Shown here: positions 37,777 through 53,475 of the stretch, piece by piece
How positions within the stretch are numbered: position 1 is the first letter of the stretch
Layout: each line of letters begins with the position of its first letter
NCBI RefSeq assembly: GCF_000012985.1
Contig: NC_007645.1
Coordinates: 1,054,001 to 1,118,000, forward strand
Direction of reading: 5' to 3'
Length of the DNA stretch: 64,000 bases
Source of the DNA: Hahella chejuensis KCTC 2396
GTDB taxonomy: Bacteria > Pseudomonadota > Gammaproteobacteria > Pseudomonadales > Oleiphilaceae
Translations under genes and position numbers: made by a program
The notes under the pieces: model-generated
Databases searched by the model: none
Told to the model about the DNA's origin: nothing
What the model saw: only the letters and a program-made list of their open reading frames with translations

Positions 37777-37777
37777 C

Positions 37778-38143
37778 TTAGCTGCCCCGGTAAGTGGAGT
37801 AGCCATAGGGAGAGAGCAGCAAGGGAATATGGTAGTGCTCGCCATCGCCGCTGATTTCAAAGACGACGTCCACATACGGGTAGAAACAGGTTTCCGGACC
37901 GCGATAACCGGGTGTATGCGTTAGCTTTTTGAAGTACGCCGCGGTATCGAAGGCCATCAGATAACGGCCTGCGGGCAACACCACGCTTTCTTCCAATAGA
38001 TTGGGCAGACGGCCGTCGGCGTTGGTTTCGCCGCCGCCAATTTGCTCCCAGTCATCGTCGACGAATGCAAAGAAGCGAATGGGAACGCCGGCGGCGGGTT
38101 TGCCCTGGGCGGTGTCCAGAACATGAGTGGTGATTTGGCTCAT
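37778..38143 (-). CDS. uraH: 5-hydroxyisourate hydrolase
   Basis: 121 residues, transthyretin-like. THVLDTAQGKPAAGVPI, the FDTAAYF region, YPYVDVVFEI and the C-terminal HYHIPLLLSPYGYSTYRGS are diagnostic; the YRGS tail distinguishes HIUases from transthyretin. It converts the PuuD product to OHCU. Its ATG overlaps the uraD stop by 4 bases. Confidence 0.95.
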   Translation of the reverse strand: MSQITTHVLDTAQGKPAAGVPIRFFAFVDDDWEQIGGGETNADGRLPNLLEESVVLPAGRYLMAFDTAAYFKKLTHTPGYRGPETCFYPYVDVVFEISGDGEHYHIPLLLSPYGYSTYRGS

Positions 38144-38649
38144 AGCAGTTTCTCCAGGCGGATGCGGGTGATTTTACGTTGCTCTTCCGCAGCGTTGTTA
38201 ACTTCCTCGCTACGCGCGTTGGGGAGTCTCGCCTCCAGCAGCGACAGCATTTCCGCCGCCGTTTTACCGGTGGCGCAGACAATAAAAATAAAGCCGAATT
38301 TCTCTTCGTAAGCCTGATTTCCGGCGGCCAGGCGCTGCAGGGTTTCCTCGTCAGCGCTGTTGACGCCGGACTGCTCGCCGGCGGCCAGGGCTTTGGTGTG
38401 AGCGTACTTGGCGCGCAGAGAGCTAACGTCACCGATTTTGGGGTGGCCGGAGAAGGCTTCCAGATAATCCTGCTCAGTTAATCCCGCCCAGATGCGGTCG
38501 GCGGTTTCGTATACAGCCGCGTGATTGGCGAATGGACGCGCCGCCGTCATGCCACGGGCCCAGGCTTCACTGCTGCAACAGGTCAGGAAGGTCGCCTGCG
38601 CCGTTTGTTCCGGCATAGCGTTGAGTTGTTCCAGGGTGACTTGGCTCAT
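38140..38649 (-). CDS. uraD: 2-oxo-4-hydroxy-4-carboxy-5-ureidoimidazoline (OHCU) decarboxylase
   Basis: 169 residues, all helical. FANHAAVYETADRIWAGLTEQDYLEAFSGHPKIGDV contains the catalytic His and the SxHPxIGD motif; EEKFGFIFIVCATGKTAAEML is the second signature. It makes S-allantoin. It overlaps both alc and uraH by 4 bases. Confidence 0.95.
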   Translation of the reverse strand: MSQVTLEQLNAMPEQTAQATFLTCCSSEAWARGMTAARPFANHAAVYETADRIWAGLTEQDYLEAFSGHPKIGDVSSLRAKYAHTKALAAGEQSGVNSADEETLQRLAAGNQAYEEKFGFIFIVCATGKTAAEMLSLLEARLPNARSEEVNNAAEEQRKITRIRLEKLL

Positions 38650-39650
38650 TTGGGATACCCCAGCACGCGCAGACGGCTGACGCCGCCGTCAGGATAAATA
38701 TTCAAGCGCAGATGGGTGAACGCGGTGGCTTTGTCCTGGATTTCATCCATGAACAGATGCTCGCGATGCGCATGCAGCTTGGTTTCAGCAATGACGGTTC
38801 GCCACTCCAGGGCTTTCAGGCTGTCTGCGTCCGTGCAGTTCGGGTCCGCCGCCACCGCGCCTTCCAGAGAAAAGCGGTCAGGGTAGTTACCTTTGAAGTG
38901 GCAGGTGTCGACGATGATTTTCTGCAAGGCTCCCGGAGCGGCCAGACGCATGATCAGCCAGTCGTAGCCTGGGCCGCGACGTCGTTTGGTTTCCCAGCCG
39001 TCGCCCATATTGACGCCGCGTCCGGGCATCAGCAGGTTCTGCATGTCGCTGAAGAACATGTCGCTGCATAGCAGGGCGCGTCCACCGTTGGCGATAGCGG
39101 CCAGATCCACCAGCTCGCCGGGCAGGGTGCGCGACCAGTCCACCTGGGGAGAACCGTATACCCGCAGCCGCGCCACGCCACCGTCGGGATAAATGTTCAA
39201 GCGTACGTGAGTCCAGTTATCGGCGCTGTCCACTTTGATCAGGTTCTGGCTGTGAGCGTTGACGCTGGTTTTTGGCAGGATCTCTGTCCACTGTGTGCCG
39301 GCGTCCGGCTCGCCCAGACAGTAGCAGGCGTCCAGAGACACCGACGCTGGGGCGTTGCCGCGGAAGTGATTGGTGTCGGCGTCGATAAAATCGATGCGAC
39401 CGGGCGCGCCGAGACGCACTGTGCACCAGTCGTAACCGCCATCGCGGCGACGCCGTGATTCCCAGCCATCCATCCATTTGCCGTTATCCGTGTATTTATC
39501 GGCGATGAAAATGCCGCGTCCGGACTTGATCAGGTTGTCCTTGGAGGCGAAGAAGTCGTCGCTGCAGGACAACACCTGGGTTCCCAGGCGTTCGGCCGCC
39601 AGGTTAAGGGCGCCAGGATAGGGCAGTTCAAAATCGATGGCGTGACTCAT
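38646..39650 (-). CDS. alc: Allantoicase
   Basis: 334 residues in two homologous halves of about 150 residues, each with a jelly-roll pattern: GKWMDGWESRRRR / GDGWETKRRRGPGYDW, and LNIYPDGGVARLRVYG / LNIYPDGGVSRLRVLG. It hydrolyses allantoate to ureidoglycolate and urea. GGAATTC lies before the ATG, 64 bases downstream of allB. Presence of Alc rather than allantoate amidohydrolase means that nitrogen is released as urea. Confidence 0.95.
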   Translation of the reverse strand: MSHAIDFELPYPGALNLAAERLGTQVLSCSDDFFASKDNLIKSGRGIFIADKYTDNGKWMDGWESRRRRDGGYDWCTVRLGAPGRIDFIDADTNHFRGNAPASVSLDACYCLGEPDAGTQWTEILPKTSVNAHSQNLIKVDSADNWTHVRLNIYPDGGVARLRVYGSPQVDWSRTLPGELVDLAAIANGGRALLCSDMFFSDMQNLLMPGRGVNMGDGWETKRRRGPGYDWLIMRLAAPGALQKIIVDTCHFKGNYPDRFSLEGAVAADPNCTDADSLKALEWRTVIAETKLHAHREHLFMDEIQDKATAFTHLRLNIYPDGGVSRLRVLGYPK

Positions 39651-39714: not shown

Positions 39715-41082
39715 TTAGCCTGCTTTGCTTTCTCTCAGCAGCGGCTGGCCTTTGGCGGCGCCGATAAACTGGTCGTCCTTGTAAATGCATTGTCCGCGTA
39801 GCCAGGTCTGGCGAATGGCGCCGGTGGCCTGCATGCCTTCATAAGGCGTAATTTTGTGGCGATGCTTGATCATGTCCTTACTGATGGTGACCGCCTGATG
39901 GTCGTCAAATACCAGCACGTCGGCGTCATAACCCGGCGCCAGGCGGCCCTTGCGATGGGATAAGCCGGCGAAGCGCGCGGTTTCCCAGCTCATCAGGCGG
40001 GAAATAAAGGGCAGCGACAGGCCCCGCTGGTGGGCTTCATGCCATACCAGGGGCAGGCTGAACTGCAAGGCGGAGATGCCGCCCCAGGCTTTTTCAATGT
40101 CGCCGCTGTCGATTTCTTTCAGTTGCGGCGTACAGGGAGAATGATCAGACACCACGAAGTCGATCAGACGTTGCTCCAAGGCTTGCCACAGGCGCTCACG
40201 GTTGTCGTTTTCACGAATGGGCGGGCAGCACTTGAACAGTGTTTTGCCATCCGGGATGGCTTCGGCGAACAGGGTCAGGTAGTGCGGGCAGGTCTCCACA
40301 GTGAAAGTCAGTCCGGACTCCTTGGCGGCCCCGATGGCGGCCAAAGCCTCCGCGGACGACAGGTGTACGATATGTACTTTGCAGTCCACGCCTTGCGCCT
40401 TAAAATCGCGGGCGGCGCCGATCATCAGATCAATGGCGTCGTTTTCCCAGGCTTTGGGGCGCGAAGCGAGGAAACTCTGATAACTATTGCCGATAGCGGG
40501 CGGAGGGCTGTGCTCTTTGTCCAGCTCTGCGTGAATCAGATAGGGAACGCCATAGCGCGCCAATATCGGCATGGCCCGCTTGACGTCGCTCTCCGTCACT
40601 GGCGGAAACTCATCGATTCCAGAGTCGATCAGAAACGACTTGACGCCCAGCACGCCTGCGTCCAGCAGTGCAGGCAGCTCATCGATATTTTCCGGTACGA
40701 CGCCGCCCCAAAAGCCGCAGTCGACCCAGAGTTTGTCGGACACTGCATCCAGCTTGGTGCGAAAGGCGTTGGCGGTGGTGGTGACCGGGATGCAGTTCAG
40801 CGGCATGTCCACCAGGGTGGTGATGCCGCCTGCGGCGGCGGCCTGGGTGGCGGTATTGAAGCCTTCCCATTCGGTGCGGCCTGGCTCGTTAATGTGTACG
40901 TGAGTGTCCACCAGACCGGGCATCACCACGTCATTGCCGACATCCACCAGCTTGTAGTCGGCGTCTATCGACATATCATAAGGCTGCACTTCCACGATTT
41001 TGCCGCCGGCCATCAGCACCGTTGCAGGCTGCATGCCCTGATCGGTGATCACTCGGCGGCTGCGAATGGCGACGCCACTCAT
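39715..41082 (-). CDS. allB: Allantoinase
   Basis: 455-residue cyclic amidohydrolase. PGLVDTHVHINEPGRTEWEGF has the HxH zinc ligands, GVKSFLIDSGIDEFP the lysine expected to be carbamylated, and VSDHSPCTPQLKE the late Asp. It opens S-allantoin to allantoate. It overlaps xdhC by 4 bases. Confidence 0.95.
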   Translation of the reverse strand: MSGVAIRSRRVITDQGMQPATVLMAGGKIVEVQPYDMSIDADYKLVDVGNDVVMPGLVDTHVHINEPGRTEWEGFNTATQAAAAGGITTLVDMPLNCIPVTTTANAFRTKLDAVSDKLWVDCGFWGGVVPENIDELPALLDAGVLGVKSFLIDSGIDEFPPVTESDVKRAMPILARYGVPYLIHAELDKEHSPPPAIGNSYQSFLASRPKAWENDAIDLMIGAARDFKAQGVDCKVHIVHLSSAEALAAIGAAKESGLTFTVETCPHYLTLFAEAIPDGKTLFKCCPPIRENDNRERLWQALEQRLIDFVVSDHSPCTPQLKEIDSGDIEKAWGGISALQFSLPLVWHEAHQRGLSLPFISRLMSWETARFAGLSHRKGRLAPGYDADVLVFDDHQAVTISKDMIKHRHKITPYEGMQATGAIRQTWLRGQCIYKDDQFIGAAKGQPLLRESKAG

Positions 41083-41981
41083 AAAGTCTCTCCTGAGGAT
41101 GTTTGCGTTGACGTTGAAGCGTCCGTGTCGCTGGCGTCGCGCGGCTCTGCCTGATCGGCGGCCCAGCTTTTAATGTCTTTCCAGGCCACGCCCTGTTGCG
41201 TGGGGCTTTCGGAAGTGTGGTACAGGCCGATTAACTCGGCGGCGATAGACACCGCCACTTCCATTGGCTGCTTGCCGGGAACGGCGGACAAGCCTACCGG
41301 GCAGCTCACGCGCTCGACCTGACTGGACGCCACGCCGCGATAGTCAAAGCGCTGGCGGAAGCGCGCCCACTTAGTGGCGGAGCCGATCAGCCCCAAATAC
41401 GCGAAGCGGTCCTGGCGCAGGATCTTTTCCGCCAGCTCGTAATCCAGCTGATGGTTGTGCGTCAGAATCAGGTAATAAAGGTTATCCGGCAGATCGTCGA
41501 TCACATCGCAGGGATAGGCGTCCACGCGCTTTTGAGTATTGGCGGGCAGCGTGCCAGGAAACAGCTCTTCCCGGGAATCTATCCAGGTCACTTGCACCGG
41601 CAGATCCGCCAGGATCGTCACCAGCGCTTTGGCGACATGGCCGGCGCCGAACAAAGCGATCTGCGTGGGGCAGGGCGCAAAGGCTTCAAACAGGACAGTG
41701 GCGCTGCCGCCGCAGCATTGGCCCAGACTGGCGCCAAGAGGGAAGTGCTCCATGCGCTGACTGTAGTCCCTTCTGGCCAGCATCTCCCGCGCCATGGCGG
41801 TGGCCTTGAACTCCAGATGGCCGCCGCCGATGGTGTCGAACGTAGCGTCGGCGGACACGACCATCTTGGTTCCACTGTCCCGGGGCGTAGAACCGCGCGC
41901 GCCGATCAGCGTGATCAGCACGAAGGGCTGCCCGGAGCGGCTGAGCCGTTGGGTGACTTCGAACCATTGCTCCTTATACAT
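41079..41981 (-). CDS. xdhC: Xanthine dehydrogenase accessory protein XdhC
   Basis: 300 residues. The N-terminal LITLIGARGSTPRDSGTKMVV and PLGASLGQCCGGSATVLFE (Cys pair used to bind molybdenum cofactor in the family) precede a Rossmann domain starting IALFGAGHVAKALVTIL. It inserts sulfurated Mo cofactor into XdhB. The C-terminal tail is Thr/Ser-rich. It is 3 bases after xdhB and overlaps allB. Confidence 0.93.
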   Translation of the reverse strand: MYKEQWFEVTQRLSRSGQPFVLITLIGARGSTPRDSGTKMVVSADATFDTIGGGHLEFKATAMAREMLARRDYSQRMEHFPLGASLGQCCGGSATVLFEAFAPCPTQIALFGAGHVAKALVTILADLPVQVTWIDSREELFPGTLPANTQKRVDAYPCDVIDDLPDNLYYLILTHNHQLDYELAEKILRQDRFAYLGLIGSATKWARFRQRFDYRGVASSQVERVSCPVGLSAVPGKQPMEVAVSIAAELIGLYHTSESPTQQGVAWKDIKSWAADQAEPRDASDTDASTSTQTSSGETL

Positions 41982-41984
41982 GGC

Positions 41985-44405
41985 TTATTCTCCCTTGGCG
42001 GCGCTCAAGGTCGCCTCAACCGCCGCCAATACCCGTTCTGGCGTCGCCGGCGTATGCAGCGGCGCGTCAATGCGGTAATCGCTCAGGCTGGAAATCGCGT
42101 CTTTGAGGGCGCACCAGACTGACATCGCCAGCATGAACGGCGGCTCGCCCACCGCTTTGGAATGATAAATGGTTTCCTCGCGATTGGGCTCATTCGGCAA
42201 CAGCTCAACGTTCAGGACTTCCGGCAGGTCCCCCAGGGTGGGAATCTTGTAGTTCGCCGGGCTGTTGCTGAGCAGGCGGCCATTGGCGTCCCAACACACT
42301 TCTTCAGTGGTGAGCCAGCCCATGCCTTGAATAAAGCCGCCTTCTATCTGACCGATGTCGATCGCCGGGTTCAGCGATTTGCCCACGTCATGCAGAATAT
42401 CCGCCCGCAGCACTTTGTATTCGCCGGTCAGGGTGTCGACGACCACTTCCGAAGCAGCGACGCCGTTGGCGAAGTAAAAGAAAGGACGGCCCGACGCGGT
42501 GTCGCGGTCATAATGGATTTTCGGCGTTTTGTAGAAACCGGTGGCGGACAGAGACACACGGCCCATGTAAGCCTGTTGGATAAATTCGGCGAACGGAAAC
42601 GCCCTTTCGCCCACATGCACATGATTATCTGCAAAGTAAATCTGCTCCGGCGTCGCCTGATACTGCTCACAGGCGAACTCAATCAGTCTGCCCTTGAGTT
42701 TCTGCGCGGCGTTCTGCGCCGCCTTGCCGTTCAGATCCGTGCCCGAGGACGCCGCCGTTGGCGAGGTGTTGGGAACTTTGTCCGTGCGTGCGGCGGAGAC
42801 GACGATATGGTCCATATCGACCTGGAATTCCTGCGCCACGATCTGCGCCACTTTGGTGTACAGGCCCTGGCCCATTTCCGTGCCGCCGTGGTTCAGGTGA
42901 ATACTGCCGTCGGTGTAAATATGAATCAGCGCGCCAGCCTGATTCAGGTGCTGTACGGTGAAGGAGATGCCGAATTTCACCGGCGTCAGCGCCAGCCCCT
43001 TTTTCAGGATCGGGCTGGATTCGTTGAAAGCGCGAATGGCTGCCTTGCGGGCGTGGTAGTCGGCATCCGCCATCAGCTTGCGCGTCATCAGCGGAATGAG
43101 GTTCTGCTCTACTTTTTGATGGTAGGGCGTGACGTCATAGCCGCCTTGTTTGAAGTCATAGCGCTCATGATCTTCCCGGTAGTAGTTCAGTAGACGCACT
43201 TCCACCGGATCTTTGCCGACGCGTCGGGCGATCGCTTCGATCATGGCTTCCGCCGCCATCATCCCCTGAGGTCCGCCAAAGCCGCGAAACGCAGTGTTGG
43301 ACACCGTATGGGTCTTGCAGCGGTTGCCGAGAATATTGGCGTTAGCCAGGTAGTAAGCGTTGTCCGCATGAAACATGGCGCGGTCGACGATAGCGTCGGA
43401 CAGGTCCGGCGAGTAACCGCACAGGCCATTCACGGTAATGTCTGCGGCCAGTATGCGGCCTTCGTCGTCAAAGCCCACGTCAAATTGATTATGGAAGTGA
43501 TGGCGCTTGCCGGTCATTTCCATGTCGTCGCTACGGCTGAGGCGGAACTTCACAGGGCGACCGCTTTTACGCGCCAGCACCGCAGCGAGGCACGCCCAGG
43601 GCGCGGCCTGAGTTTCTTTGCCGCCGAAACCACCGCCCATGCGTCGCACGTCGACGGTAATGCGATTGAAGGGGACGTCGAGCACTTCCGCCACCAGCTT
43701 CTGCACTTCCGAAGGATGCTGGCTGGAGGAGAAAATCTGCATGCCGCCATCTTCGTCTGGAATCGCCAGGGAAATCTGGCCTTCCAGATAAAAATGTTCC
43801 TGCCCGCCGACCTCAATATCGCCGCTCAAGCGGTTAGGCGCGCTGGCGATCGCCGCTTCCGGCTCGCCCAGTCTCATCTGATGAGGCGGACGCACAAACA
43901 GCTGTTGTTGCAGGGCGTCTTCAATAGTGAGCGTCGCGGGCAATACTTCGTATTCAACTTCCGCCAGTTTCACCGCGCGGCGGGCGGCGTTATGGCTTTC
44001 CGCGGCGACGGCGAACAGGGGCTGACCGACGAATTCCACCTTATCCTTGGCCAGCAGCATATCGCCGGGAAAAACCGGACCGATATCCAGATGCCCCGGT
44101 ATGTCGTCGGCGGTAATCACGCACAGCACGCCGGGCGCGGTGCGGACTTTGTCCAGGTTCATGGAAAGAATGCGGGCGTGGGCGTGAGGACTTTTACCCA
44201 CGCAGCCGTATAGTTGCCCCGCGTGGGAGAAGCGATCGTCGATGTATTGGGCTTCGCCGGCTACGTGTTTGTGCGCGCTGTCGTGCTTGGCGTCGCGCCC
44301 TGCTTTGGGAGAGCCTTGAGATGGTTCCAGGCGCGTATGGGCCGCTGGCGCGCCATCCAACTTCACCTCAAGTGGTTTGCCGAGTTTGTTCAACAGATCA
44401 CGCAT
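41985..44405 (-). CDS. xdhB: Xanthine dehydrogenase molybdenum-binding subunit
   Basis: 806 residues. The catalytic subunit that oxidises hypoxanthine and xanthine to urate. RMGGGFGGKETQAAPWACLAAVLARK, NTAFRGFGGPQGMMAAEAMIEAIA and SPTAASSGTDLNGKA are molybdopterin-contact loops; the FRGFGGPQ Arg and a late EVCWDANGRLLSNSPANYKIPTLGD with the VGEPPFMLAMSV Glu match active-site positions of XDH. The ATG at 44405 overlaps xdhA by 8 bases; the longer open frame to 44510 is not used. Confidence 0.95.
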   Translation of the reverse strand: MRDLLNKLGKPLEVKLDGAPAAHTRLEPSQGSPKAGRDAKHDSAHKHVAGEAQYIDDRFSHAGQLYGCVGKSPHAHARILSMNLDKVRTAPGVLCVITADDIPGHLDIGPVFPGDMLLAKDKVEFVGQPLFAVAAESHNAARRAVKLAEVEYEVLPATLTIEDALQQQLFVRPPHQMRLGEPEAAIASAPNRLSGDIEVGGQEHFYLEGQISLAIPDEDGGMQIFSSSQHPSEVQKLVAEVLDVPFNRITVDVRRMGGGFGGKETQAAPWACLAAVLARKSGRPVKFRLSRSDDMEMTGKRHHFHNQFDVGFDDEGRILAADITVNGLCGYSPDLSDAIVDRAMFHADNAYYLANANILGNRCKTHTVSNTAFRGFGGPQGMMAAEAMIEAIARRVGKDPVEVRLLNYYREDHERYDFKQGGYDVTPYHQKVEQNLIPLMTRKLMADADYHARKAAIRAFNESSPILKKGLALTPVKFGISFTVQHLNQAGALIHIYTDGSIHLNHGGTEMGQGLYTKVAQIVAQEFQVDMDHIVVSAARTDKVPNTSPTAASSGTDLNGKAAQNAAQKLKGRLIEFACEQYQATPEQIYFADNHVHVGERAFPFAEFIQQAYMGRVSLSATGFYKTPKIHYDRDTASGRPFFYFANGVAASEVVVDTLTGEYKVLRADILHDVGKSLNPAIDIGQIEGGFIQGMGWLTTEEVCWDANGRLLSNSPANYKIPTLGDLPEVLNVELLPNEPNREETIYHSKAVGEPPFMLAMSVWCALKDAISSLSDYRIDAPLHTPATPERVLAAVEATLSAAKGE

Positions 44406-45867
44406 AGTGAAATACCCTCGTCGCCACCGCCCCATCGGCGCTTTCAATATACAACCGCTGCAACAGGTTCGCAGCCACTTTGCTGCGATAGTCGGCGCTG
44501 GCGCGGACATCGCTCAAAGGAGAGAACTCCTGTGTTATGGCCGCCTGAGCGGCGCTGATCGTGTCTGGCGTCCAGGGCTGGCCAAGCATGGCCTGCTCGG
44601 TGAGGGCGGCGCGCTTGGGGATGGCGGCCATCCCCCCGACGCCCAGGCGAATATTCGCCACCTTCTCGTTCTCTATTTGGACATAACACGCCAGGCACAC
44701 GGCGGAAATATCGTCCTCCAGTCGTTTGCTGACTTTATACAGATGCAGTTTGGCGTTTGCTTGAGCGCGGGGAATGCTGATAGAGGCAATGAACTCGCCG
44801 GGCTGTAACGCTGTTTTCTTGTAGTCCAGGAAAAACTGATCGATGGGAAGCCGACGACTCTGATCGCCTTTGCGCAGCGTCAATTCAGCATTCAACGCCA
44901 GCAGCACCGGCGGCATGTCGCCGATAGGGGAGGCGTTGCCGATGTTGCCCCCCAGGGTGCCCTGATTGCGCACCTGCATTGAGCCCAGGCGTTCCAGAAA
45001 CGGCTCCATATCGGGATATTCCTGGGTCAGCGCGGACATGGCGCGCTCGTAAGTGACGGCGGCGCCGATTTCCAGTGAGTCCTCAGTAACCGTCAGCGCG
45101 TTCATCTCGGCGACGGCGCCGACATAGATAACATGATCGAGCTGTTTCAACTGCTGAGTGACTTCCAGCGCCAGATCGGTGCCGCCAGCCAACAAACGGG
45201 CATGGGGCGCGGCGTCGTAAAACTGGGCGAGCTGGTCGAGCGACTCAGGCAGGTGGAAATGTTTGGCGACGCCCTGTTCTTCGCGCGTGACGGAACCGGG
45301 GCCTTGCGCCTTGATGGCGGCCAGTTTGGCGCAGATAGCGGCTTCATCTTCTCTTATTTGCGTCAGTTGTTCAGGAGATGTGGCCTGTCGCGCGGCGTCC
45401 AGAATAGGTCGATAGCCGGTGCAGCGGCACAGATTGCCGGCCAGATAGGCCTCTCCTTCCTGACGTGAGCAGGCGCGCGTATCCGCCTGTTGCTGTTTAT
45501 GCTGATACAAGGCGTACAGGGACATGACGAAGCCGGGTGTGCAGAAACCGCATTGGGAGCCGTGCTGATCGACCATCGCCTGTTGCACGGGATGCAGGCT
45601 TCCGCGCCGGTTAAGATATTCAACAGTGATGAGCTGTTTGCCGTGCAGGCCGCCCAGGAAGGTAATGCATGTATTAATGGAGCGGTAGGCTAATGCGCCG
45701 TTTTCCTCTGTGGCGATCACCGCGGTGCAGGCGCCGCAGTCGCCGGATGCGCAGCCCTCCTTGGTTCCGGTTAGCCCCTTATTGGTGCGCAAGAACTCTA
45801 AAATGGTCAAATCCGGGTCAAAATTGTCGAGCTCTAAGGCGTCGTCGTTGAGTAAAAATCGAATCAC
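44398..45867 (-). CDS. xdhA: Xanthine dehydrogenase small subunit (2Fe-2S and FAD)
   Basis: 489 residues. Two [2Fe-2S] sets are visible: C39, C44, C47 and C67, and C106, C109, C147 and C149 (GCASGDCGAC, CGFC, CRC). The FAD domain has ARLLAGGTDLALEVTQ and GNIGNASPIGDMPPVLLALNAEL. It passes electrons from XdhB to NAD+. It is the first gene of the 11-kb operon and is preceded by the divergent control region with RutR-like boxes. Confidence 0.95.
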   Translation of the reverse strand: MIRFLLNDDALELDNFDPDLTILEFLRTNKGLTGTKEGCASGDCGACTAVIATEENGALAYRSINTCITFLGGLHGKQLITVEYLNRRGSLHPVQQAMVDQHGSQCGFCTPGFVMSLYALYQHKQQQADTRACSRQEGEAYLAGNLCRCTGYRPILDAARQATSPEQLTQIREDEAAICAKLAAIKAQGPGSVTREEQGVAKHFHLPESLDQLAQFYDAAPHARLLAGGTDLALEVTQQLKQLDHVIYVGAVAEMNALTVTEDSLEIGAAVTYERAMSALTQEYPDMEPFLERLGSMQVRNQGTLGGNIGNASPIGDMPPVLLALNAELTLRKGDQSRRLPIDQFFLDYKKTALQPGEFIASISIPRAQANAKLHLYKVSKRLEDDISAVCLACYVQIENEKVANIRLGVGGMAAIPKRAALTEQAMLGQPWTPDTISAAQAAITQEFSPLSDVRASADYRSKVAANLLQRLYIESADGAVATRVFHYA

Positions 45868-46129
45868 CGTGGCGTACCTTGATCTTTTTATATACAGCTT
45901 ACTAAAAATTTTTTGTTATAACGTCCACATGACGCCGCTTAATTTTATACGCAGACAGTCGCTGGTTTTTCACGCCTGTCCTTATAGCTTACGCCCTTTA
46001 AAAAACTTGTCTACATGGTCAGGTTATTATTTACATACAAATTCGGTCAACCTATAGTTCAACTCAGATCTGATCGAACATTAGGCGGATTTTTGCGTCG
46101 ATGTAAGGTTAGCAAATGTTTTGCCAAAG

Positions 46130-46145
46130 TTGATCAATTGGTCAA
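46130..46145. promoter_or_regulatory. RutR-type operator box 1
   Basis: TTGATCAATTGGTCAA matches the E. coli RutR consensus TTGACCAnnTGGTCAA at 13 of 14 fixed positions. It lies between xdhA and the ABC importer genes; the probable cognate regulator is encoded at 52834-53475. Confidence 0.65.
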
Positions 46146-46156
46146 ATAAGAAAAAA

Positions 46157-46172
46157 CTGACCAGTTGGCCAA
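46157..46172. promoter_or_regulatory. RutR-type operator box 2
   Basis: CTGACCAGTTGGCCAA matches the RutR consensus at 12 of 14 fixed positions and box 1 at 12 of 16. The centre is 27 bp from box 1, about 2.5 helical turns. Confidence 0.6.
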
Positions 46173-46362
46173 AAATTTGCATTCGGAATGAACGCAAACC
46201 GGCATAAGCAGTCTGAACCCGCGTCATTCGCGGTGTTTGGGCGGTTGAAATTGCCGGGGTTTATGTTGATGATGCGGCCCCTGTTTGACCTGGGCCGGCG
46301 TCAGACCCCGGAGCCGGACAGAATAAAAACAGCAGAAATATTCCAAAGAGGCTTGGCAGCGC

Positions 46363-47943
46363 ATGACAATCGATATTGATCTTCCTCCGCCGAGTAAGGA
46401 TTACCGGCTGCAGCTACAGGGAATCACCAAGCAGTATCCAGGCTGCCTGGCCAATGATCGCGCTCATCTAAACATCCGTCCTGGCGAAGTGCACGCCCTT
46501 CTTGGCGAAAACGGGGCGGGCAAAAGCACCTTGATGAAAATTATCTACGGGGTCACCCGGCCAGACGCCGGCGTTATTTACTGGGAAGGCGAGCCGGTGG
46601 AGATCGCCGATCCGGCGGCGGCGCGTCGCCTGGGCATCGGGATGGTGTTCCAGCACTTCTCTTTATTCGAAACGCTCACTGTCGCAGAAAACATCTCTCT
46701 CAGCCTGCCGAAAGAGCAGGTGCGCGATCGCGCCGCCTTATCCCGCCGCATCAGCGACGTATCCAGTAAATACGGCATGGCGCTGAATCCGGATCGTCTG
46801 GTGCATACCTTATCTATAGGCGAACGTCAGCGGGTCGAGATCGTGCGTTGCCTGCTGCAGGATATCAAGCTGCTGATCCTGGACGAGCCGACCTCGGTGT
46901 TGACGCCCCAGGAGGTCGACCAGTTATTCGCTACGCTGCGGCAATTATCTCAGGAAGGCTGCAGCATCCTCTTTATCAGTCACAAGTTAAATGAAGTGCG
47001 TGCGCTGTGCGACAACGCCACTATCCTGCGGGCTGGACGCGTCAGCGGCCATTGCGTCCCGGCGGAAGAAACCAACCACAGCATCGCCCGCCTGATGGTG
47101 GGGGACGATACGCCAGTGCATGCGGAGCATGAGAAAACCGAGGGCGGTGAAGATTACCTGATCGTGGACAACCTGTCGGTGAAGACGGACGACCCTTTCG
47201 GCGTCAATCTGGAGTCACTCAGCTTTACCGTGAAAGCCGGTGAGATTCTTGGCGTGGCGGGAGTGGCCGGCAATGGCCAGGAAGAATTGCTGGCTGCGCT
47301 CAGCGGTGAAACGGTGGTTCTGGACTCCCCTGAAGCGATCCGTCTGTTGACGCAACCGGTGGCGGCGATGACTTCCGGTCAGCGTCGCAAACTGGGAGTG
47401 GGGTTCGTGCCGGAAGAGCGTCTGGGTCGCGGCGCGGTGCCGGATATGAGCCTGAAAGAAAACGGACTGCTGACCGGCTATTTCCAGGGACTGACCAAAG
47501 CCGGCCTGATCAGTATGCCGGCGGTGCGCAAATTTGCGGAAACCGTGCGCACCCGCTTCAACGTCAAAGCCCCCAACACGGAAACTCACGCCAAATGCCT
47601 GTCTGGAGGCAACCTGCAAAAATTCATCATTGGCCGTGAAATTCTGCAGAACCCGAAGCTCCTGATCGCCGCGCACCCGACCTGGGGCGTGGATGTGGGC
47701 GCCGCCCTGGCGATCCACAAAGCGTTGATCGAGCTGCGTGATCGCGGCGCGGCTATTCTGGTGGTGTCAGAAGATCTGGACGAACTCTTCGCCATCAGCG
47801 ATCGCCTGTGCGCCCTGTACGTGGGCAAGATCTCGCCGATTAAAGCGACCAGGGATACCACTATCGCTGAAGTGGGCGGCTGGATGGGCGGCGACTTTCT
47901 GGAGTCGTCGCAGCCTGCGCCGAAGCAGGCGGTGGGAGCCTGA
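46363..47943 (+). CDS. BMP-type (purine/nucleoside) ABC importer, ATP-binding protein with two NBDs
   Basis: 526 residues. NBD1 has LLGENGAGKST (Walker A, about 47-56), the Q-loop in GMVFQHFSLFETLTVAENI, a signature LSIGERQRVEIVR and Walker B LLILDEPTSVLTPQE. NBD2 is degenerate at Walker A (GVAGNGQEELLAAL) but has LSGGNLQKFIIGREI, as in RbsA/NupA-type proteins. With the two permeases and the BMP lipoprotein-like binding protein it forms a nucleoside/purine-type importer. Control is probably through the RutR-like boxes upstream. Confidence 0.9.
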   Translation: MTIDIDLPPPSKDYRLQLQGITKQYPGCLANDRAHLNIRPGEVHALLGENGAGKSTLMKIIYGVTRPDAGVIYWEGEPVEIADPAAARRLGIGMVFQHFSLFETLTVAENISLSLPKEQVRDRAALSRRISDVSSKYGMALNPDRLVHTLSIGERQRVEIVRCLLQDIKLLILDEPTSVLTPQEVDQLFATLRQLSQEGCSILFISHKLNEVRALCDNATILRAGRVSGHCVPAEETNHSIARLMVGDDTPVHAEHEKTEGGEDYLIVDNLSVKTDDPFGVNLESLSFTVKAGEILGVAGVAGNGQEELLAALSGETVVLDSPEAIRLLTQPVAAMTSGQRRKLGVGFVPEERLGRGAVPDMSLKENGLLTGYFQGLTKAGLISMPAVRKFAETVRTRFNVKAPNTETHAKCLSGGNLQKFIIGREILQNPKLLIAAHPTWGVDVGAALAIHKALIELRDRGAAILVVSEDLDELFAISDRLCALYVGKISPIKATRDTTIAEVGGWMGGDFLESSQPAPKQAVGA

Positions 47944-47993
47944 AGAATGAGAGAGCATAACGAAGCAGACTTGTTAGCGAAGGGGGCCGGGCA

Positions 47994-49130
47994 ATGATAT
48001 TTAAACTGGAGCGTCGTGTGGACGACTCCCGCTGGATGGCGTATCTCTCTCCCATACTGGCGGGGGCGCTGACGCTGATTACCGGCTCCATTCTGTTCTG
48101 GGCGTTGGACAAAGATCCACTGCAAACCCTTTACACCTTCTTTATAGCGCCGGTGTCGGATCTGTACGGCTGGACCGAGCTGGGGGTGAAAGCTGCGCCG
48201 ATCATGCTATGCGCCCTGGGATTGGCGGTATGTTATCGGGGCAAGGTCTGGAATATCGGGGCGGAAGGACAGCTCCTGTTCGGGGCCCTGGTCGGCGGCG
48301 CCGTGGCGCTGCAGTTTCTGGAAAGCGACTCCGCATTCGCCCTGCCGCTGGTGCTGTTGGCTGGCGCGTTGGCGGGCATGGCCTGGGCGGCTATTCCCGC
48401 GTTGTTGAAAACCCACTTCAACACCAACGAAATTCTCACCACCATCATGCTCAACTACATTGCGCTGAACCTGTTGCTGTTCAGCGTGCATGGGCCTCTC
48501 AAAGACCCTGGCGGGTTCAATTTTCCCGAGTCCGCCCTGTTCACGGAAGCCGTGACGTTGCCGTTGTTGCTGGAAGACAGTCGCATGCATATCGGTATTC
48601 TTTTCGCTTTGTTCGCCCTGGTGGCGGTATGGGTGCTGTTGAGCAAAACCTTTGTTGGTTTTCAGATCAAGGTATTGGGGCTGGATACCCGCGCCGCCCA
48701 CTTCGCCGGCTTTAAAGAACGCCGTCTGGTGTGGCTGGCGCTATTGTTGAGTGGGGCTCTGGCTGGTCTGGCCGGTGTGTGCGAGGTGTCCGGGCCGATT
48801 GGTCAGCTGGTGCCGCAGGTCTCACCGGGTTACGGCTATGCGGCGATCATCGTCGCCTTTCTGGGGCGTCTGCACCCGGTGGGCATTCTCCTGTCGAGCA
48901 TGTTGATGGCGTTGATCTATATCGGCGGCGAGCTGGTGCAGATTGAACTGAACCTGCCGCTGGCGCTGACGGGGCTGTTTCAAGGCATGCTGCTGTTTTT
49001 CCTGCTGGCTTGCGATGTGCTGATCGTATACCGCATCCGCCTGAATCCGCGTTTCAGCACGATGCGCAAGCCTTCTCCGGAGGCGCTGGTGAACGGCGCG
49101 GACGCAAAACTATCCACTCACTCGCAATAA
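47994..49130 (+). CDS. BMP-type ABC importer permease 1
   Basis: 378 residues with about nine hydrophobic segments. YRGKVWNIGAEGQLLFGALVGGAVAL and TNEILTTIMLNYIALNLLLF are the signatures of the BPD_transp_2 permeases that pair with BMP binding proteins. GGGGGCCGGGCA precedes the ATG. It forms the membrane channel with the next gene. Confidence 0.9.
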   Translation: MIFKLERRVDDSRWMAYLSPILAGALTLITGSILFWALDKDPLQTLYTFFIAPVSDLYGWTELGVKAAPIMLCALGLAVCYRGKVWNIGAEGQLLFGALVGGAVALQFLESDSAFALPLVLLAGALAGMAWAAIPALLKTHFNTNEILTTIMLNYIALNLLLFSVHGPLKDPGGFNFPESALFTEAVTLPLLLEDSRMHIGILFALFALVAVWVLLSKTFVGFQIKVLGLDTRAAHFAGFKERRLVWLALLLSGALAGLAGVCEVSGPIGQLVPQVSPGYGYAAIIVAFLGRLHPVGILLSSMLMALIYIGGELVQIELNLPLALTGLFQGMLLFFLLACDVLIVYRIRLNPRFSTMRKPSPEALVNGADAKLSTHSQ

Positions 49131-49142: not shown

Positions 49143-50069
49143 ATGGATTACGATTTGATAGTCAATATTCTGTACGCCACCGTCCGCACGGGCACGCCGC
49201 TGATTCTTGTCGCGCTGGGCGAGCTGGTGTGTGAAAAGTCTGGCGTGCTTAATCTGGGTCAGGAAGGCATGATGCTGATGGGCGCGGTGATCGGCTTTAT
49301 CGCAGCGCTGGAAACCGGCAACTTGTGGCTGGGCGTCACCTTCGCCATGACGGCGGGACTGCTCATGTCGCTGTTATTCGGATTCATCTCGCTTAATCTG
49401 AGCGCCAATCAGGTCGCCACCGGTCTGGCTCTGACCATATTCGGGGCTGGTCTTAGCGCTTTCGTAGGCAGCGATTATGTGGGGACGCCGCTGGAAGGCA
49501 TTCAACCCTGGCATATTCCTTTGCTCTCGGACATTCCTTTTGTTGGCCGCATTCTGTTCAGTCATGACCCACTGGTCTATCTTTCATTCGGACTCTTCGT
49601 CGGCGTTTACCTGTTCCTGAACCGCTCCCACGCCGGACTGGCGCTGAAAGCGGTGGGCGAGTCGCCGCAGTCCGCCAAAGCTACGGGACTGCCAGTGTTC
49701 AAGATTCGCTATCTGGCGGTGATGTTCGGCGGCGCCATGGCGGGGCTCGCTGGCGCCTACTTATCATTGGCCTATACGCCGCTGTGGGCGGAAAACATGA
49801 CCGCCGGGCGCGGCTGGATCGCTCTGGCGCTGGTGGTGTTCGCCAGTTGGAAGGCCGAGAGGGTGTTGCTGGGGGCGTATCTGTTTGGCGCGTTCAGCAT
49901 CATGCATCTGGTGGCGCAGGGGCTGGGCTTTTCGGTGTCGCCGAATCTGCTGGCGATTATGCCTTACCTGGCGACCATTGTGGTGCTGGTGATGCTGTCT
50001 TCGGATAAAGCCAGGGTGAAGCTCTATGCGCCGGTATCGCTGGGCAAACCGTTCCATCCGGCGGACTAA
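49143..50069 (+). CDS. BMP-type ABC importer permease 2
   Basis: 308 residues, about eight hydrophobic segments. ATVRTGTPLILVALGELVCEKSGVLNLGQEGMMLMGA is the diagnostic N-terminal region. GGRGWIALALVVFASWKAERVLLGAYLF-type sequence near the end (here TAGRGWIALALVVFASWK) is also conserved. It follows permease 1 by 12 bases. Confidence 0.9.
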   Translation: MDYDLIVNILYATVRTGTPLILVALGELVCEKSGVLNLGQEGMMLMGAVIGFIAALETGNLWLGVTFAMTAGLLMSLLFGFISLNLSANQVATGLALTIFGAGLSAFVGSDYVGTPLEGIQPWHIPLLSDIPFVGRILFSHDPLVYLSFGLFVGVYLFLNRSHAGLALKAVGESPQSAKATGLPVFKIRYLAVMFGGAMAGLAGAYLSLAYTPLWAENMTAGRGWIALALVVFASWKAERVLLGAYLFGAFSIMHLVAQGLGFSVSPNLLAIMPYLATIVVLVMLSSDKARVKLYAPVSLGKPFHPAD

Positions 50070-50170: not shown

Positions 50171-51268
50171 ATGAAGCAAGAAAAGAAATCGTTGGCGCAG
50201 CGCTTCGCCAAGGCCGCGGGCGTCGCACTGGCGCTGTTTATGTCGGCGCAGTCCGTGACGGCGGCGGAACCGGTGAAGGTCGGTTTCGTCTACGTCGGAC
50301 CTACCGGCGACGCGGGTTGGACATACTCTCACGACAAAGCGCGTAAGTATGTCGAAGAGCAGCTTGGCGATAAAGTAAAAACCACTTATGTCGAGAGCGT
50401 GGCGGAAGGCGCAGACGCGGAGCGTGTAATCCGTCAGTTGGCCAAGTCCGGCAACGATTTGATCTTCACCACTTCCTTCGGCTACATGAATCCAACCCTG
50501 AAGGTGGCCAAGCAGTTTCCCAAGGTTAAATTCGAACACGCCAGCGGTTACAAGCGCGCCAAGAATGTGGGCACTTACTTCGATCGTATCTATGAAGGTC
50601 GTTACCTGACCGGCGTTATCGCTGGCAAGATGACCAAGTCCAACGTCATCGGCTATGTCGGCTCCTTCCCGATTCCTGAAGTGGTGCGCGGCATTGACGC
50701 CTTCACACAGGGTCTGCGCAGCGTCAATCCCAAGGCGGTGGTGAAGGTGGTGTGGGTCAGCTCCTGGTATGATCCGGCGAAAGAGCGGGAAGCGGCGGAA
50801 ACTCTGATTCTGCAAGGCGCTGACATTATTAACCAGCACACGGATTCCCCAGGGCCTATCCAGGCGGCGCAAGCCAAAGGCGTGTATGCGTTCGGCTATC
50901 ACTCCGACATGTCTCTGTACGGCAAAGACGCGCATCTGACCGCAGCCACCCACAACTGGGGACCGGTCTATCTGGATAAAGTGAAGTCTGTGATAGACGG
51001 CAACTGGACTTCTACGGATTTCTGGGGTGGCCTGGCGACCGGCGCCACAGCGCTGGCGCCGCTCAATTCGGCGATCCCGGAAGACGTCGTCAAACTGGTG
51101 GAAGAACGCAAGCAGGCCATCATTGAGGGCAAACTGCACCCCTTCCAGGGGCCGGTCAAAGATCAGACTGGCGCGATCAAAGTGCCTGCTGGCCAGGTCA
51201 TGAGTGATGAAGACATGCTCTCTCTGAACTGGTATGTGGAAGGCGTGGAAGGAGAGCTTCCCAAGTAG
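50171..51268 (+). CDS. BMP family ABC substrate-binding protein
   Basis: 365 residues. A signal peptide (MKQEKKSLAQRFAKAAGVAL...VTAA, cleavage near residue 31) is followed by VKVGFVYVGPTGDAGWTYSH, the Bmp/PnrA N-terminal motif, GNDLIFTTSFGYMNPTLKVA and GSFPIPEVVRGIDAFTQG. No lipobox Cys is present, so it is a soluble periplasmic protein. Members bind purine nucleosides or bases; placement between xdh genes and 8-oxoguanine deaminase argues for a purine ligand. Confidence 0.9.
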   Translation: MKQEKKSLAQRFAKAAGVALALFMSAQSVTAAEPVKVGFVYVGPTGDAGWTYSHDKARKYVEEQLGDKVKTTYVESVAEGADAERVIRQLAKSGNDLIFTTSFGYMNPTLKVAKQFPKVKFEHASGYKRAKNVGTYFDRIYEGRYLTGVIAGKMTKSNVIGYVGSFPIPEVVRGIDAFTQGLRSVNPKAVVKVVWVSSWYDPAKEREAAETLILQGADIINQHTDSPGPIQAAQAKGVYAFGYHSDMSLYGKDAHLTAATHNWGPVYLDKVKSVIDGNWTSTDFWGGLATGATALAPLNSAIPEDVVKLVEERKQAIIEGKLHPFQGPVKDQTGAIKVPAGQVMSDEDMLSLNWYVEGVEGELPK

Positions 51269-51300
51269 GCGCCCGTCCTGCTTTAACTTATGATGGCCCC

Positions 51301-51321
51301 GGCGCCGGTTTTTCCGGCGCC
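51301..51321 (+). other. Strong hairpin between binding protein and 8-oxoguanine deaminase genes
   Basis: GGCGCCGG (51301-51308), loop TTTTT, CCGGCGCC (51314-51321). Perfect 8-bp GC stem, no following T-run. Probably a 3' end stabiliser or partial terminator within the operon. Confidence 0.5.
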
Positions 51322-51355
51322 AGGATATCAGGGCGATCAAAATACGGGTGATCAG

Positions 51356-52717
51356 ATGACGACTCTCTGGATAAAGAATCCACTGGCGATATACGGCCAG
51401 GAAGCGGACTGCGACGCTGGCGGCGGCGTAGTGACGCGCGGCTCGGAAATCGTTGAACTGGTGGCGGCGGGCGGCGCGCCTGCAACGCCCTATGACGAGA
51501 CCTTCGACGCCTCGCAGCATGTATTGCTGCCGGGACTGATCAACACCCATCATCATTTTTATCAAACACTGACGCGGGCGTTGCCCGACGCCTTGAACAA
51601 GTCGCTGTTCCCCTGGTTGCAGAGCCTTTATAAAGTCTGGGCGCATCTGGATGCGGACATGGTGCGTCTGGCCACCGAGATGGCGTCAGCGGAACTCCTG
51701 TTGTCCGGTTGCACCACGGCGGCGGATCATCATTATCTGTTTCCCATGCAGATCGACAACGCCATCGACATCCAGGCGGAAGCGGTGCGCAAGATGGGCA
51801 TTCGCGCTTTATTGACGCGGGGCTCCATGAGCCTGGGGGAAAAAGACGGCGGTCTGCCGCCGCAGTCGGTGGTGCAGGATGAACAGTCGATCCTGGATGA
51901 CAGCCTGCGTCTGATCCGGGCCTATCATGACGGCAACGACGGCTCCATGCTGCAGATCGCCCTGGCGCCCTGCTCGCCATTCTCCGTCACCCGTGAACTG
52001 ATGCAGGAAACCAATCATCTGGCTTCCCGGGAAGGTGTTTTGCTGCACACCCATCTGGCGGAAACCGAGGACGAAAATGACTTCTGCCTGCGGGTCTACG
52101 GCGTGCGACCGGTGGAATATCTGGCGGAAGTGGGATGGATGCACGAAGGCGTCTGGCTGGCCCATGGCATTCACTTCACCGATGAAGAAATGGATGAACT
52201 GGGGCGTCGCGGCGTTGGCGTCGCGCACTGCCCCAGCTCCAATATGCTGTTGGGCTCCGGCGTGTGTCAGACGCTGGATCTGCAGAAGCGGGGCGCTCCC
52301 GTCGGACTGGCGGTGGACGGCTCCGCTTCCAACGATTGCTCCAACATGATTCAGGAAGTGCGTCAGGCGCTGCTGATACAGCGTTTGCGCTATGCGCCGG
52401 GAGAGATCACCCATCAATGGGCATTGGACCTGGCCACCAAGGGCTCGGCGAAGCTGCTCAAGCGTCCTGAACTGGGCGTGCTGGGCGTCGGAAAACAAGC
52501 GGACCTGGCGTTGTTCAAGCTGGATGAGAATCGCTTTTCCGGCTCCGGCGATCCGCTGGCGGCGTTGGTGTTGTGCGGCGCCCATCAGGCGGATGCGGTG
52601 ATGGTGGCCGGGCGCTGGCGCGTCAAAAACAGTGTTCTCATGGATGTGGATATGGCTCGATTGCGCGCGGAACATACCGCTGCGGCGCTGCGTTTGCGCC
52701 AAGCCGCTTGCAGTTAA
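51356..52717 (+). CDS. 8-oxoguanine deaminase
   Basis: 453-residue amidohydrolase of the ATZ/TRZ-like group. LPGLINTHHHFYQTLTRALPDALNKSLFPWLQSLYKVW has the zinc HxH; HTHLAETEDENDFCLRVYGVRPVEYL, HGIHFTDEEMDELG and LAVDGSASNDCSNMIQEVRQALL supply the remaining ligands. The NxHHHFYQTLTRA-LPWL pattern is that of P. aeruginosa PA0142-type 8-oxoguanine deaminases, which release urate. Urate would enter the pathway at PuuD. The ATG at 51356 is chosen; the frame is open to 51290. Isoguanine or another purine could also be a substrate. Confidence 0.85.
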   Translation: MTTLWIKNPLAIYGQEADCDAGGGVVTRGSEIVELVAAGGAPATPYDETFDASQHVLLPGLINTHHHFYQTLTRALPDALNKSLFPWLQSLYKVWAHLDADMVRLATEMASAELLLSGCTTAADHHYLFPMQIDNAIDIQAEAVRKMGIRALLTRGSMSLGEKDGGLPPQSVVQDEQSILDDSLRLIRAYHDGNDGSMLQIALAPCSPFSVTRELMQETNHLASREGVLLHTHLAETEDENDFCLRVYGVRPVEYLAEVGWMHEGVWLAHGIHFTDEEMDELGRRGVGVAHCPSSNMLLGSGVCQTLDLQKRGAPVGLAVDGSASNDCSNMIQEVRQALLIQRLRYAPGEITHQWALDLATKGSAKLLKRPELGVLGVGKQADLALFKLDENRFSGSGDPLAALVLCGAHQADAVMVAGRWRVKNSVLMDVDMARLRAEHTAAALRLRQAACS

Positions 52718-52833: not shown

Positions 52834-53475
52834 ATGGTATTGAAAACAAACCGTGTGGAGAATCCGGGCCGTATCAGGCAAAAGAATGAAATGCTTATCC
52901 TGCGGGCGGCGGAAATAGAATTCGCCCGCCACGGTTTCAAGGGCGCGACAGTTCAGCAGATCGCAGACACCGCAGGGCTGCCCAAAGCCAACGTTCATTA
53001 TTATTTCAAAAGCAAGCACGACCTTTATCTGGCGGTGCTGAGCGACATCGTCGAACTCTGGAACTCCGCCTTTGACGCCATCCGCCCGGAAGACAGTCCG
53101 GCGGACGCTCTGGGACGTTATATCCGCTCCAAGGTCATGTTGGCGAAAACCCATCCATTGGCTTCCAAGATCTTCGCAACGGAGATCATCAGTGGGGCGC
53201 CTACGCTGGGCAAATACCTGAAATCCAATAACCGCCAATGGGTCAGGGAAAAATCTGCGGTGATCCAGTCCTGGATTGATCAGGGCAAAATCGATCCCAT
53301 TTCCCCGGAGCACCTGATTTTCCTGATTTGGAGCGCCACCCAGCATTACGCGGACTTTAGCACTCAGATTGAAGCCGTGCTGGGACGCAAAAAGCTGACC
53401 TCCAAGGATTTCGATTTTGCGGCGGATAACCTGATTCGCATTATTCTGAAAGGCTGCGGCGTCAAAACTCCCTGA
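52834..53475 (+). CDS. rutR: RutR-like TetR family transcriptional regulator
   Basis: 213 residues. The HTH is at about 38-58 (TVQQIADTAGLPKANVHYYFKSK). The C-terminal ligand domain keeps PEHLIFLIWSATQHYADFSTQIEAVLG, nearly word for word with E. coli RutR, and LASKIFATEIISGAP matches its ligand pocket helix. E. coli RutR senses uracil/thymine. Here the neighbours are purine genes, and two RutR-type boxes lie 6.7 kb upstream. ATG 52834 has AGGG upstream; 52819 and 52774 are alternatives. The name indicates homology, not proven ligand. Confidence 0.85.
   Translation: MVLKTNRVENPGRIRQKNEMLILRAAEIEFARHGFKGATVQQIADTAGLPKANVHYYFKSKHDLYLAVLSDIVELWNSAFDAIRPEDSPADALGRYIRSKVMLAKTHPLASKIFATEIISGAPTLGKYLKSNNRQWVREKSAVIQSWIDQGKIDPISPEHLIFLIWSATQHYADFSTQIEAVLGRKKLTSKDFDFAADNLIRIILKGCGVKTP

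What the first reader, a model, noticed from the sequence alone, without database searches (positions are those of the whole stretch)
46007..46180. RutR-type operators between a complete purine degradation operon and a purine-type importer
Seen: TTGATCAATTGGTCAA (46130-46145) and CTGACCAGTTGGCCAA (46157-46172), 27 bp centre to centre, inside a 69-bp dyad with 14/16 matching arms, plus a weaker box at 46007. Known: the E. coli RutR site as I recall it is TTGACCAnnTGGTCAA, and RutR senses uracil and thymine. A close RutR homologue is encoded at 52834-53475. Inference: a RutR-family protein has been wired to purine catabolism and uptake here, perhaps sensing a purine or cross-linking pyrimidine and purine supply. 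I know of no description of this arrangement.
Basis: partly seen in the sequence, partly recalled or inferred. Interest (0 to 1): 0.72.

Follow-up and report, generated by a model that had tools for sequence, protein, structure and literature searches.

The report
Purine-dedicated RutR repressor and its operators
Between the genes that break down purines and a likely purine importer, this bacterium has binding sites for a relative of RutR, the uracil-sensing regulator of E. coli, and the same regulator-plus-site arrangement recurs in many related species, which suggests a branch of RutR that now senses purines.

Summary
The boxes are real. 46130-46145 is the only one of the genome's five 1-mismatch RutR-type sites that lies outside a long ORF. 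A matrix trained on xdhA upstreams, this genome left out, ranks the three boxes as the window's top three sites. The arrangement is not peculiar to this strain: 79 of 89 xdhA-bearing genomes of the order carry a RutR-like protein, against 19 of 204 without xdhA. 53 of 83 xdhA upstreams from such genomes hold a box at two or fewer mismatches, against 1 of 10 without (six of those ten from one family). The genome has no RutA match and only a 74-residue PydA-like fragment, so its single RutR-like protein has no pyrimidine pathway found here to control. It is 43% identical to E. coli RutR and falls on a purine-linked side of the family tree that holds no pyrimidine-linked row (weak support). All five uracil contacts are kept, but residue 78, beside stacking Trp77, is Asn/Asp in 42 of 42 purine-linked rows of that side and in 0 of 15 pyrimidine- or F420-linked rows. 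Best reading: a repressor released by xanthine or a close purine. Binding and ligand are untested.

The parts
46130..46145 (.). RutR-type operator box 1, TTGATCAATTGGTCAA (1 mismatch)
46157..46172 (.). RutR-type operator box 2, CTGACCAGTTGGCCAA (2 mismatches), 27 bp from box 1
46007..46022 (.). RutR-type operator box 3, TTGTCTACATGGTCAG (3 mismatches; second-best matrix score of the window)
46112..46180 (.). outer dyad enclosing boxes 1 and 2 (16-nt arms, 14 of 16 complementary)
52834..53475 (+). RutR-like TetR regulator (TetR_N + TetR_C_3/YcdC-like), Asn at E. coli position 78; the open frame extends to a TTG at 52774
46363..47943 (+). importer ATPase (ABC_tran, two stretches)
47994..49130 (+). 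importer permease 1 (BPD_transp_2)
49143..50069 (+). importer permease 2 (BPD_transp_2)
50171..51268 (+). BMP/PnrA-type substrate-binding protein
51290..52717 (+). 8-oxoguanine deaminase (PRK08203 equivalog, 668 bits against cut-off 532)
44398..45867 (-). xanthine dehydrogenase small subunit (xdhA)
41985..44510 (-). xanthine dehydrogenase molybdopterin-binding subunit (xdhB)
41079..41981 (-). xdhC accessory protein
39715..41082 (-). allantoinase
38646..39650 (-). allantoicase
38140..38649 (-). OHCU decarboxylase (UraD)
37778..38143 (-). hydroxyisourate hydrolase-like ORF (121 aa, C-terminal YRGS; identification recalled, no family scan run)
37276..37875 (-). ureidoglycolate lyase (AllA; start probably internal)
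35931..37235 (-). guanine deaminase
34643..35860 (-). urate oxidase (Urate_ox_N plus cytochrome c)
34020..34511 (-). xanthine phosphoribosyltransferase

Best explanation
The RutR-like protein at 52834-53475 belongs to a branch of the YcdC/RutR regulators that is dedicated to purines. As a dimer it binds the boxes at 46007, 46130 and 46157 and represses both the xdh-to-xpt degradation operon and the divergent importer / 8-oxoguanine deaminase / regulator genes, so it also controls itself. A purine that shares the dioxopyrimidine ring of uracil, most likely xanthine and possibly urate, enters the kept uracil pocket (Trp77, Trp167, Gln171, Tyr97, Gln179'). Asn/Asp78 then reads or makes room for the imidazole ring, and the protein leaves the DNA. 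Shown here: boxes, gene content, linkage, co-occurrence, box conservation, residue pattern. Inferred: binding, repression, co-transcription of the regulator with the importer, and the ligand.
For: Best-placed boxes of the genome. Presence: 79 of 89 xdhA genomes carry a RutR-like protein against 19 of 204 without xdhA (kinship not corrected). Boxes at 2 or fewer mismatches in the core: 53 of 83 xdhA upstreams with, 1 of 10 without, 1.5% of shuffles (Fisher p 0.0015). An unseeded tally of perfect inverted repeats ranks TGACC-N4-GGTCA first, in 22 of 83 upstreams with a shuffle maximum of 5; it is in 1 of 10 controls, G040. Matrix scores over the 97th percentile of 608 background upstreams: importer ATPase 11 of 13 (9 of these 13 share the xdhA gap on which the matrix was trained; of the 4 separate ones 3 pass), UraA-type permease 6 of 10 (all separate), xdhA 20 of 24 (circular); xdhB, xdhC, perm1, perm2 0 of 14, 15, 12, 12. 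Single RutR-like gene, no RutA match and only a PydA-like fragment, no GntR gene within 170 kb. Pocket and residue 78. In E. [quoted passage not shown] three of the seven most divergent of 212 columns (78, 80, 81) lie within four residues after Trp77.
Against: No binding or ligand data. 30 of 83 upstreams with a regulator have no box at 2 or fewer mismatches, and one control, G040, has one; six of the ten controls are from one family (f15). 'With regulator' means any RutR-like match at E 1e-20, not proven purine-branch. L060 has regulator, importer and xdhA together but no box of this type between them (4 mismatches). G034 and G128, which hold two of the regulators most like the window's, have no box at xdhA (5 mismatches); their regulator sits by guaD with weak boxes. 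Upstreams of 8-oxoguanine deaminase (0 of 12), guaD (4 of 14) and the regulators themselves (14 of 64) are mostly box-free. Three rows labelled purine-linked fall on the pyrimidine side; the split has bootstrap 74 / SH-aLRT 98, and a smaller 65-row tree left four pyrimidine-linked rows unresolved beside the purine rows. Column 78 was not left out of the trees. The residue-78 link is largely one event: the independent-pairs test points the same way but is not significant (median p 0.25). Where residue 78 sits in three dimensions was not measured.
Confidence: 0.6

Rival explanations
1. The regulator is still a uracil sensor, as in E. coli, and couples pyrimidine supply to purine breakdown and import.
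For: All five uracil-contacting residues are kept. E. coli RutR already has a reported purine-degradation target. In G074 the pyrimidine-linked and purine-linked paralogues sit by similar boxes (L102 CTGACCAATCGGTCAG; L079 CTGACCAAGCAGTCAG).
Against: Hahella has no RutA match and only a PydA-like fragment. The residue beside Trp77 and its neighbours differ systematically from pyrimidine-linked rows. G073, G074, G103 and G197 keep two RutR-family copies, one beside purine genes or the BMP importer and one beside pyrimidine-type genes, which argues for two signals. In the E. coli K-12 stretch that holds the gcl operon I found no box better than 3 mismatches, and neither 3-mismatch site lies before gcl, so the E. 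coli precedent does not rest on a clear box there.
Confidence: 0.23
2. Another regulator works these boxes, for example a UgmR-like GntR repressor that answers to urate, and the RutR-like gene is only a neighbour.
For: UgmR (PA1520, GntR family) represses purine genes in P. aeruginosa and is released by uric acid (PMC12694930, passages).
Against: No GntR gene within 170 kb of the cluster (17 matches in the genome). Box presence follows the RutR-like gene and the box is of the E. coli carA RutR type (TTGACCATTTGGTCCA). UgmR's own site was not given in the passages seen, so the two sites were not compared.
Confidence: 0.11
3. The boxes are chance palindromes in an AT-rich intergenic region.
For: At 3 mismatches the genome holds no excess of the motif (499 against 487); the changes against HN01 are only three.
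Against: Two boxes 27 bp apart and a third 123 bp from the first; top three matrix scores of 64 kb with this genome left out of training; conservation across the order.
Confidence: 0.03

Closest known systems
Escherichia coli RutR (uracil-sensing TetR regulator of rutABCDEFG, carAB and others)
   Same: Domains TetR_N + TetR_C_3, 43% identity, uracil contacts kept, operator of the carA type.
   Different: Below the RutR equivalog cut-offs; no RutA match and only a PydA-like fragment in the genome; its neighbours are purine degradation and import genes; Asn78 in place of Leu78; other side of the tree.
P. aeruginosa PA1504 (RutR-type TetR protein near the gcl/purine genes; PMC12694930, passages)
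   Same: RutR-type C-terminal domain, beside purine catabolic genes.
   Different: Only proposed as a possible regulator of the gcl cluster; its sequence was not compared here and no site was given in the passages seen.
P. aeruginosa UgmR (PA1520; PMC12694930, passages)
   Same: Represses purine/allantoin genes; released by uric acid.
   Different: GntR family, not TetR; no GntR gene near this cluster.
RutR regulons of RegPrecise (PMC5343134, abstract, section 13 and passages)
   Same: RutR predicted in 68 genomes of 13 proteobacterial groups, mean 10.9 genes, with taxon-specific motif changes.
   Different: Described there as pyrimidine catabolism; the passages seen do not mention purine genes under RutR. 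Gene lists (RegPrecise, supplements) could not be seen, so purine targets may already be listed there.

Membership tests
YcdC/RutR family (PF08362 TetR_C_3) | TetR_N plus TetR_C_3 domains over the gathering scores | tested here: met
   178.3 bits against 25, and 49.2 against 24
RutR equivalog (TIGR03613 / PRK15008) | score over the curated cut-off | tested here: not met
   200.6 against 368; 185.7 against 230. The first cut-off is strict: 0 of 274 sampled genomes of the class pass it, and a pydA-linked row (L201, 226 bits) fails too
RutR equivalog (TIGR03613 / PRK15008) | genome holds a pyrimidine catabolic pathway (rutA or pydA) | tested here: not met
   no RutA match (no positive control in that search); best PydA match is a 74-residue fragment, E 5e-6
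RutR equivalog (TIGR03613 / PRK15008) | uracil-contacting residues W77, Y97, W167, Q171, Q179 | tested here: met
   all five conserved in the window protein
RutR equivalog (TIGR03613 / PRK15008) | DNA binding released by uracil | not testable with these tools
   needs protein
purine-linked RutR branch (named here) | linkage to xdh/guaD/BMP importer genes, Asn/Asp78, boxes at purine promoters | tested here: met
UgmR-type GntR regulation | GntR gene in or near the purine cluster | tested here: not met
   17 GntR matches (15 over the cut-off), nearest at 1284380, about 177 kb from the regulator

The most novel reading that the evidence does not exclude
A whole branch of RutR, spread over the Hahella order and some Alteromonadales, changed its ligand from uracil to xanthine (or urate) by keeping the uracil clamp and putting Asn or Asp beside the stacking Trp77, while keeping nearly the same operator code. 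Genomes with both paralogues (e.g. G074) would then run purine and pyrimidine catabolism through two sensors that read near-identical boxes.
Probability: 0.45. Interest if true: 0.7.

Novelty: new variant of a known kind. Interest (0 to 1): 0.56.

Why it matters
If true, it names a regulator for xanthine dehydrogenase and purine import across a large bacterial order, shows how a tight uracil sensor can be turned into a purine sensor by few changes near one stacking tryptophan, and gives a likely xanthine-responsive repressor. It also warns that proteins annotated RutR from sequence may be purine regulators.

Tried and rejected
Genome-wide scan at 3 mismatches: no excess over the reversed pattern (499 against 487), so only the best sites were used.

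Wider regulon in this genome: a 2-mismatch box at genome position 4502349 lies between mtnA and an MTA/SAH-deaminase-like gene. 30 of the 202 genomes with that gene were delivered as loci and scanned; of the 6 other regulator-bearing ones none has a box better than 3 mismatches there, so it is not claimed as a target. Another lies 67 bp before a 2OG-Fe(II) oxygenase gene (6907261) whose relatives stand in 4 of the fetched regulator loci; suggestive only.

My recollection that PA1520 is a TetR protein was wrong; it is GntR. An earlier count said or imply that no control has the TGACC-N4-GGTCA repeat; a recount found it in 1 of 10, G040.

Structure: eleven requests for a model of the regulator were answered 'machine is busy', so the position of residue 78 was not measured and no fold search was run.

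Promoter scan of 45850-46400: 2 promoter-like sites against 1.0 expected, not informative.

Literature: ten searches showed no title, abstract start or passage describing a purine-dedicated RutR branch or a xanthine-responsive RutR protein. Three of these listings were cut at 20 rows (346, 1,676 and 59 papers). Passages were seen in PMC5343134, PMC10891134, PMC5299692, PMC11651626, PMC11633122, PMC13086498, PMC12694930, PMC6790063, PMC9736018 and PMC6245113; no paper was read whole. Subscription journals and RegPrecise tables were not searchable, so absence from print is not shown. The RutR ligand paper (PMC4325133) is not held.

Full report
What is there. The window lies at 1054001-1118000 of a single 7,215,267-bp contig; from that length I recall Hahella chejuensis, and Hahella sp. 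HN01 encodes a nearly identical regulator (100% in the best segment; 99%). A minus-strand row runs from xdhA at 45867 down to xpt at 34020: xdhA, xdhB, xdhC, allantoinase, allantoicase, UraD, a hydroxyisourate hydrolase-like ORF (my reading), ureidoglycolate lyase, guanine deaminase, urate oxidase and xanthine phosphoribosyltransferase. A plus-strand row runs from 46363 to 53475: an ABC ATPase, two permeases, a BMP/PnrA-type binding protein, an 8-oxoguanine deaminase and the RutR-like regulator. The boxes lie in the divergent gap between the two. That each row is one transcript is inferred.

Are the boxes more than chance? Box 1 is one of five genome sites at 1 mismatch; the other four lie inside long ORFs. 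Of 28 sites at 2 or fewer mismatches, only boxes 1 and 2 lie within 100 bp of each other. A matrix trained on 82 xdhA upstreams of other genomes, seeded with the RutR core, gives the three boxes the three best scores of the whole window. Against Hahella sp. HN01 the three substitutions inside boxes all fall in the NN centres, but the gap as a whole is 97% identical. At 3 mismatches there is no genome-wide excess (499 against 487), so box 3 stands on context and matrix score.

How widespread is it? In 293 genomes of the order, 98 carry a RutR-like protein at E 1e-20 or better, 89 carry xdhA at 1e-80 and 46 carry the importer ATPase at 1e-130. Of the 89 with xdhA, 79 carry the regulator, against 19 of 204 without xdhA; of the 46 with the ATPase, 41 do (kinship not corrected). 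I took 60 stretches, mostly around the better of the more than 150 listed matches, plus 4 named loci; they hold 64 regulator genes, of which 40 have xdh, guaD, importer, urate or allantoin genes in the stretch, 6 have pyrimidine-type genes and 18 neither. In the 450 bp before xdhA, 53 of 83 upstreams from regulator-bearing genomes (79 genomes, four with two copies; one upstream only 248 bp) have a box at 2 or fewer mismatches in the 12 specified core bases. In the genomes without a regulator it is 1 of 10, and in dinucleotide shuffles 1.5% (Fisher p 0.0015). The ten controls are few and six come from one family. A tally of perfect inverted repeats that assumes no motif ranks TGACC-N4-GGTCA first, in 22 of 83 with a shuffle maximum of 5, and it is in 1 of 10 controls. 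Matrix scores above the 97th percentile of 608 background upstreams occur before UraA-type permeases (6 of 10) and the importer ATPase (11 of 13, but 9 of those 13 share the xdhA gap used in training; of the 4 separate ones 3 pass), and never before xdhB, xdhC, perm1 or perm2 (0 of 14, 15, 12, 12); xdhA itself, 20 of 24, is circular. Counter-cases: 8-oxoguanine deaminase 0 of 12, guaD 4 of 14, regulators 14 of 64; L060 has the genes but no such box; G034 and G128 lack boxes at xdhA; 30 of 83 upstreams fall short of the 2-mismatch line.

What is the regulator? It has TetR_N and TetR_C_3 domains and is 43% identical to E. coli RutR over 186 residues, but below the curated RutR cut-offs; the TIGR03613 cut-off is strict, since none of 274 sampled genomes of the class passes it. 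It is the genome's only RutR-like protein. The genome gives no RutA match, in a search without a positive control, and only a 74-residue match to PydA. In a tree of 85 family members (HN01 left out as a near copy of the window protein) one side holds 60 rows: 42 purine-linked, 18 unlinked, none pyrimidine-linked. The other holds 25 rows: 14 pyrimidine-linked, one by F420 genes, 7 unlinked and 3 labelled purine-linked (L104, L230, L232). The split has support 74/98, weak by bootstrap; an earlier 65-row tree left four pyrimidine-linked rows unresolved beside the purine rows. Labels come from matches to window, pyd, rut or cof proteins within the fetched stretch, so unlinked means only not seen nearby.

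The pocket. E. coli RutR holds uracil between W77 and W167, with Q171, Y97 through water, and Q179 of the partner (PMC10891134, figure legend passage). The window protein keeps all five. Over the 46 purine-labelled rows W167 and Q171 are invariant, W77 is kept in 45, Q179 in 43, and Y97 is Tyr (35) or Phe (11). Of 212 columns, position 78 separates purine-labelled from pyrimidine- or F420-linked rows best: Asn or Asp in 44 of 46 against 0 of 15; positions 80 and 81 are also among the first seven. On the purine side Asn/Asp is present in 42 of 42 linked rows and 11 of 18 unlinked rows (Fisher p 8e-5, kinship not corrected; the independent-pairs test points the same way but is not significant, median p 0.25). 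In E. [quoted passage not shown] A purine would need room on the C5-C6 side; xanthine carries the same dioxo ring as uracil (textbook chemistry), which makes it my first candidate and urate the second. I could not place residue 78 in space because the structure service was busy at all eleven attempts.

How it most likely works. Repressor on DNA without purine; both rows off; xanthine (made from guanine by GuaD, consumed by Xdh) or a close base binds, the dimer leaves, and degradation, import and the regulator itself come on. Steps shown: boxes, linkage, co-occurrence, conservation. Steps inferred from RutR's known mechanism and the sequence: binding, repression, co-transcription of the regulator, ligand.

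Known or new? E. coli RutR already includes a purine-degradation operon among its reported targets (PMC6790063, table passage; PMC10891134, passage), although I found no box better than 3 mismatches in that stretch of K-12 and none of those sites lies before gcl. The RutR-type protein PA1504 was suggested, untested, for the P. aeruginosa gcl cluster, and the same paper names the GntR repressor UgmR with uric acid (PMC12694930, passages). RegPrecise predicted RutR regulons in 68 genomes under the heading pyrimidine catabolism (PMC5343134, passages and section 13); its gene lists could not be seen. I therefore rate this a new variant of a known kind: RutR-type control, with a purine-dedicated branch that the listings and passages seen here do not describe.

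Noticed in passing
own genome 4502349 (L219 around 3150): RutR-type box TTGATCAAGTGGTCAG between divergent mtnA and an MTA/SAH deaminase-like hydrolase; not conserved at that gene in the 6 other regulator-bearing genomes scanned.
   Followed up: partly
own genome 6907261 (L225 around 3162): Box TTAACCAAATGGTCGA 67 bp before a 2OG-Fe(II) oxygenase gene; relatives of that oxygenase (30-36% identity) stand in the regulator loci L076, L077, L080 and L083.
   Followed up: partly
L106, L107, L231: RutR-family regulators beside F420 biosynthesis genes (cofD and others), an N-carbamoyl hydrolase-like gene (L106, L107) and, annotated in L231, a TIGR03842 F420-dependent oxidoreductase; possibly an F420-linked pyrimidine-like catabolism.
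   Followed up: no
L087, L096, L115: A RutR-family subgroup with Glu78 next to what look like housekeeping genes (a topoisomerase-like and a UbiD-like gene, my reading of the sequence), no purine genes seen.
   Followed up: no
L099: A second RutR-family paralogue of genome G255 with Lys78, beside an MTA-deaminase-like gene.
   Followed up: no
L060 1881 and 1958: Two copies of a different palindrome, TTGACAT..(A/G)TGTCAA, between xdhA and the importer where the usual box is missing.
   Followed up: no
L230 (Cupriavidus campinensis plasmid): RutR-family protein with Leu78 beside a BMP-type importer, an exception to the residue-78 rule.
   Followed up: no
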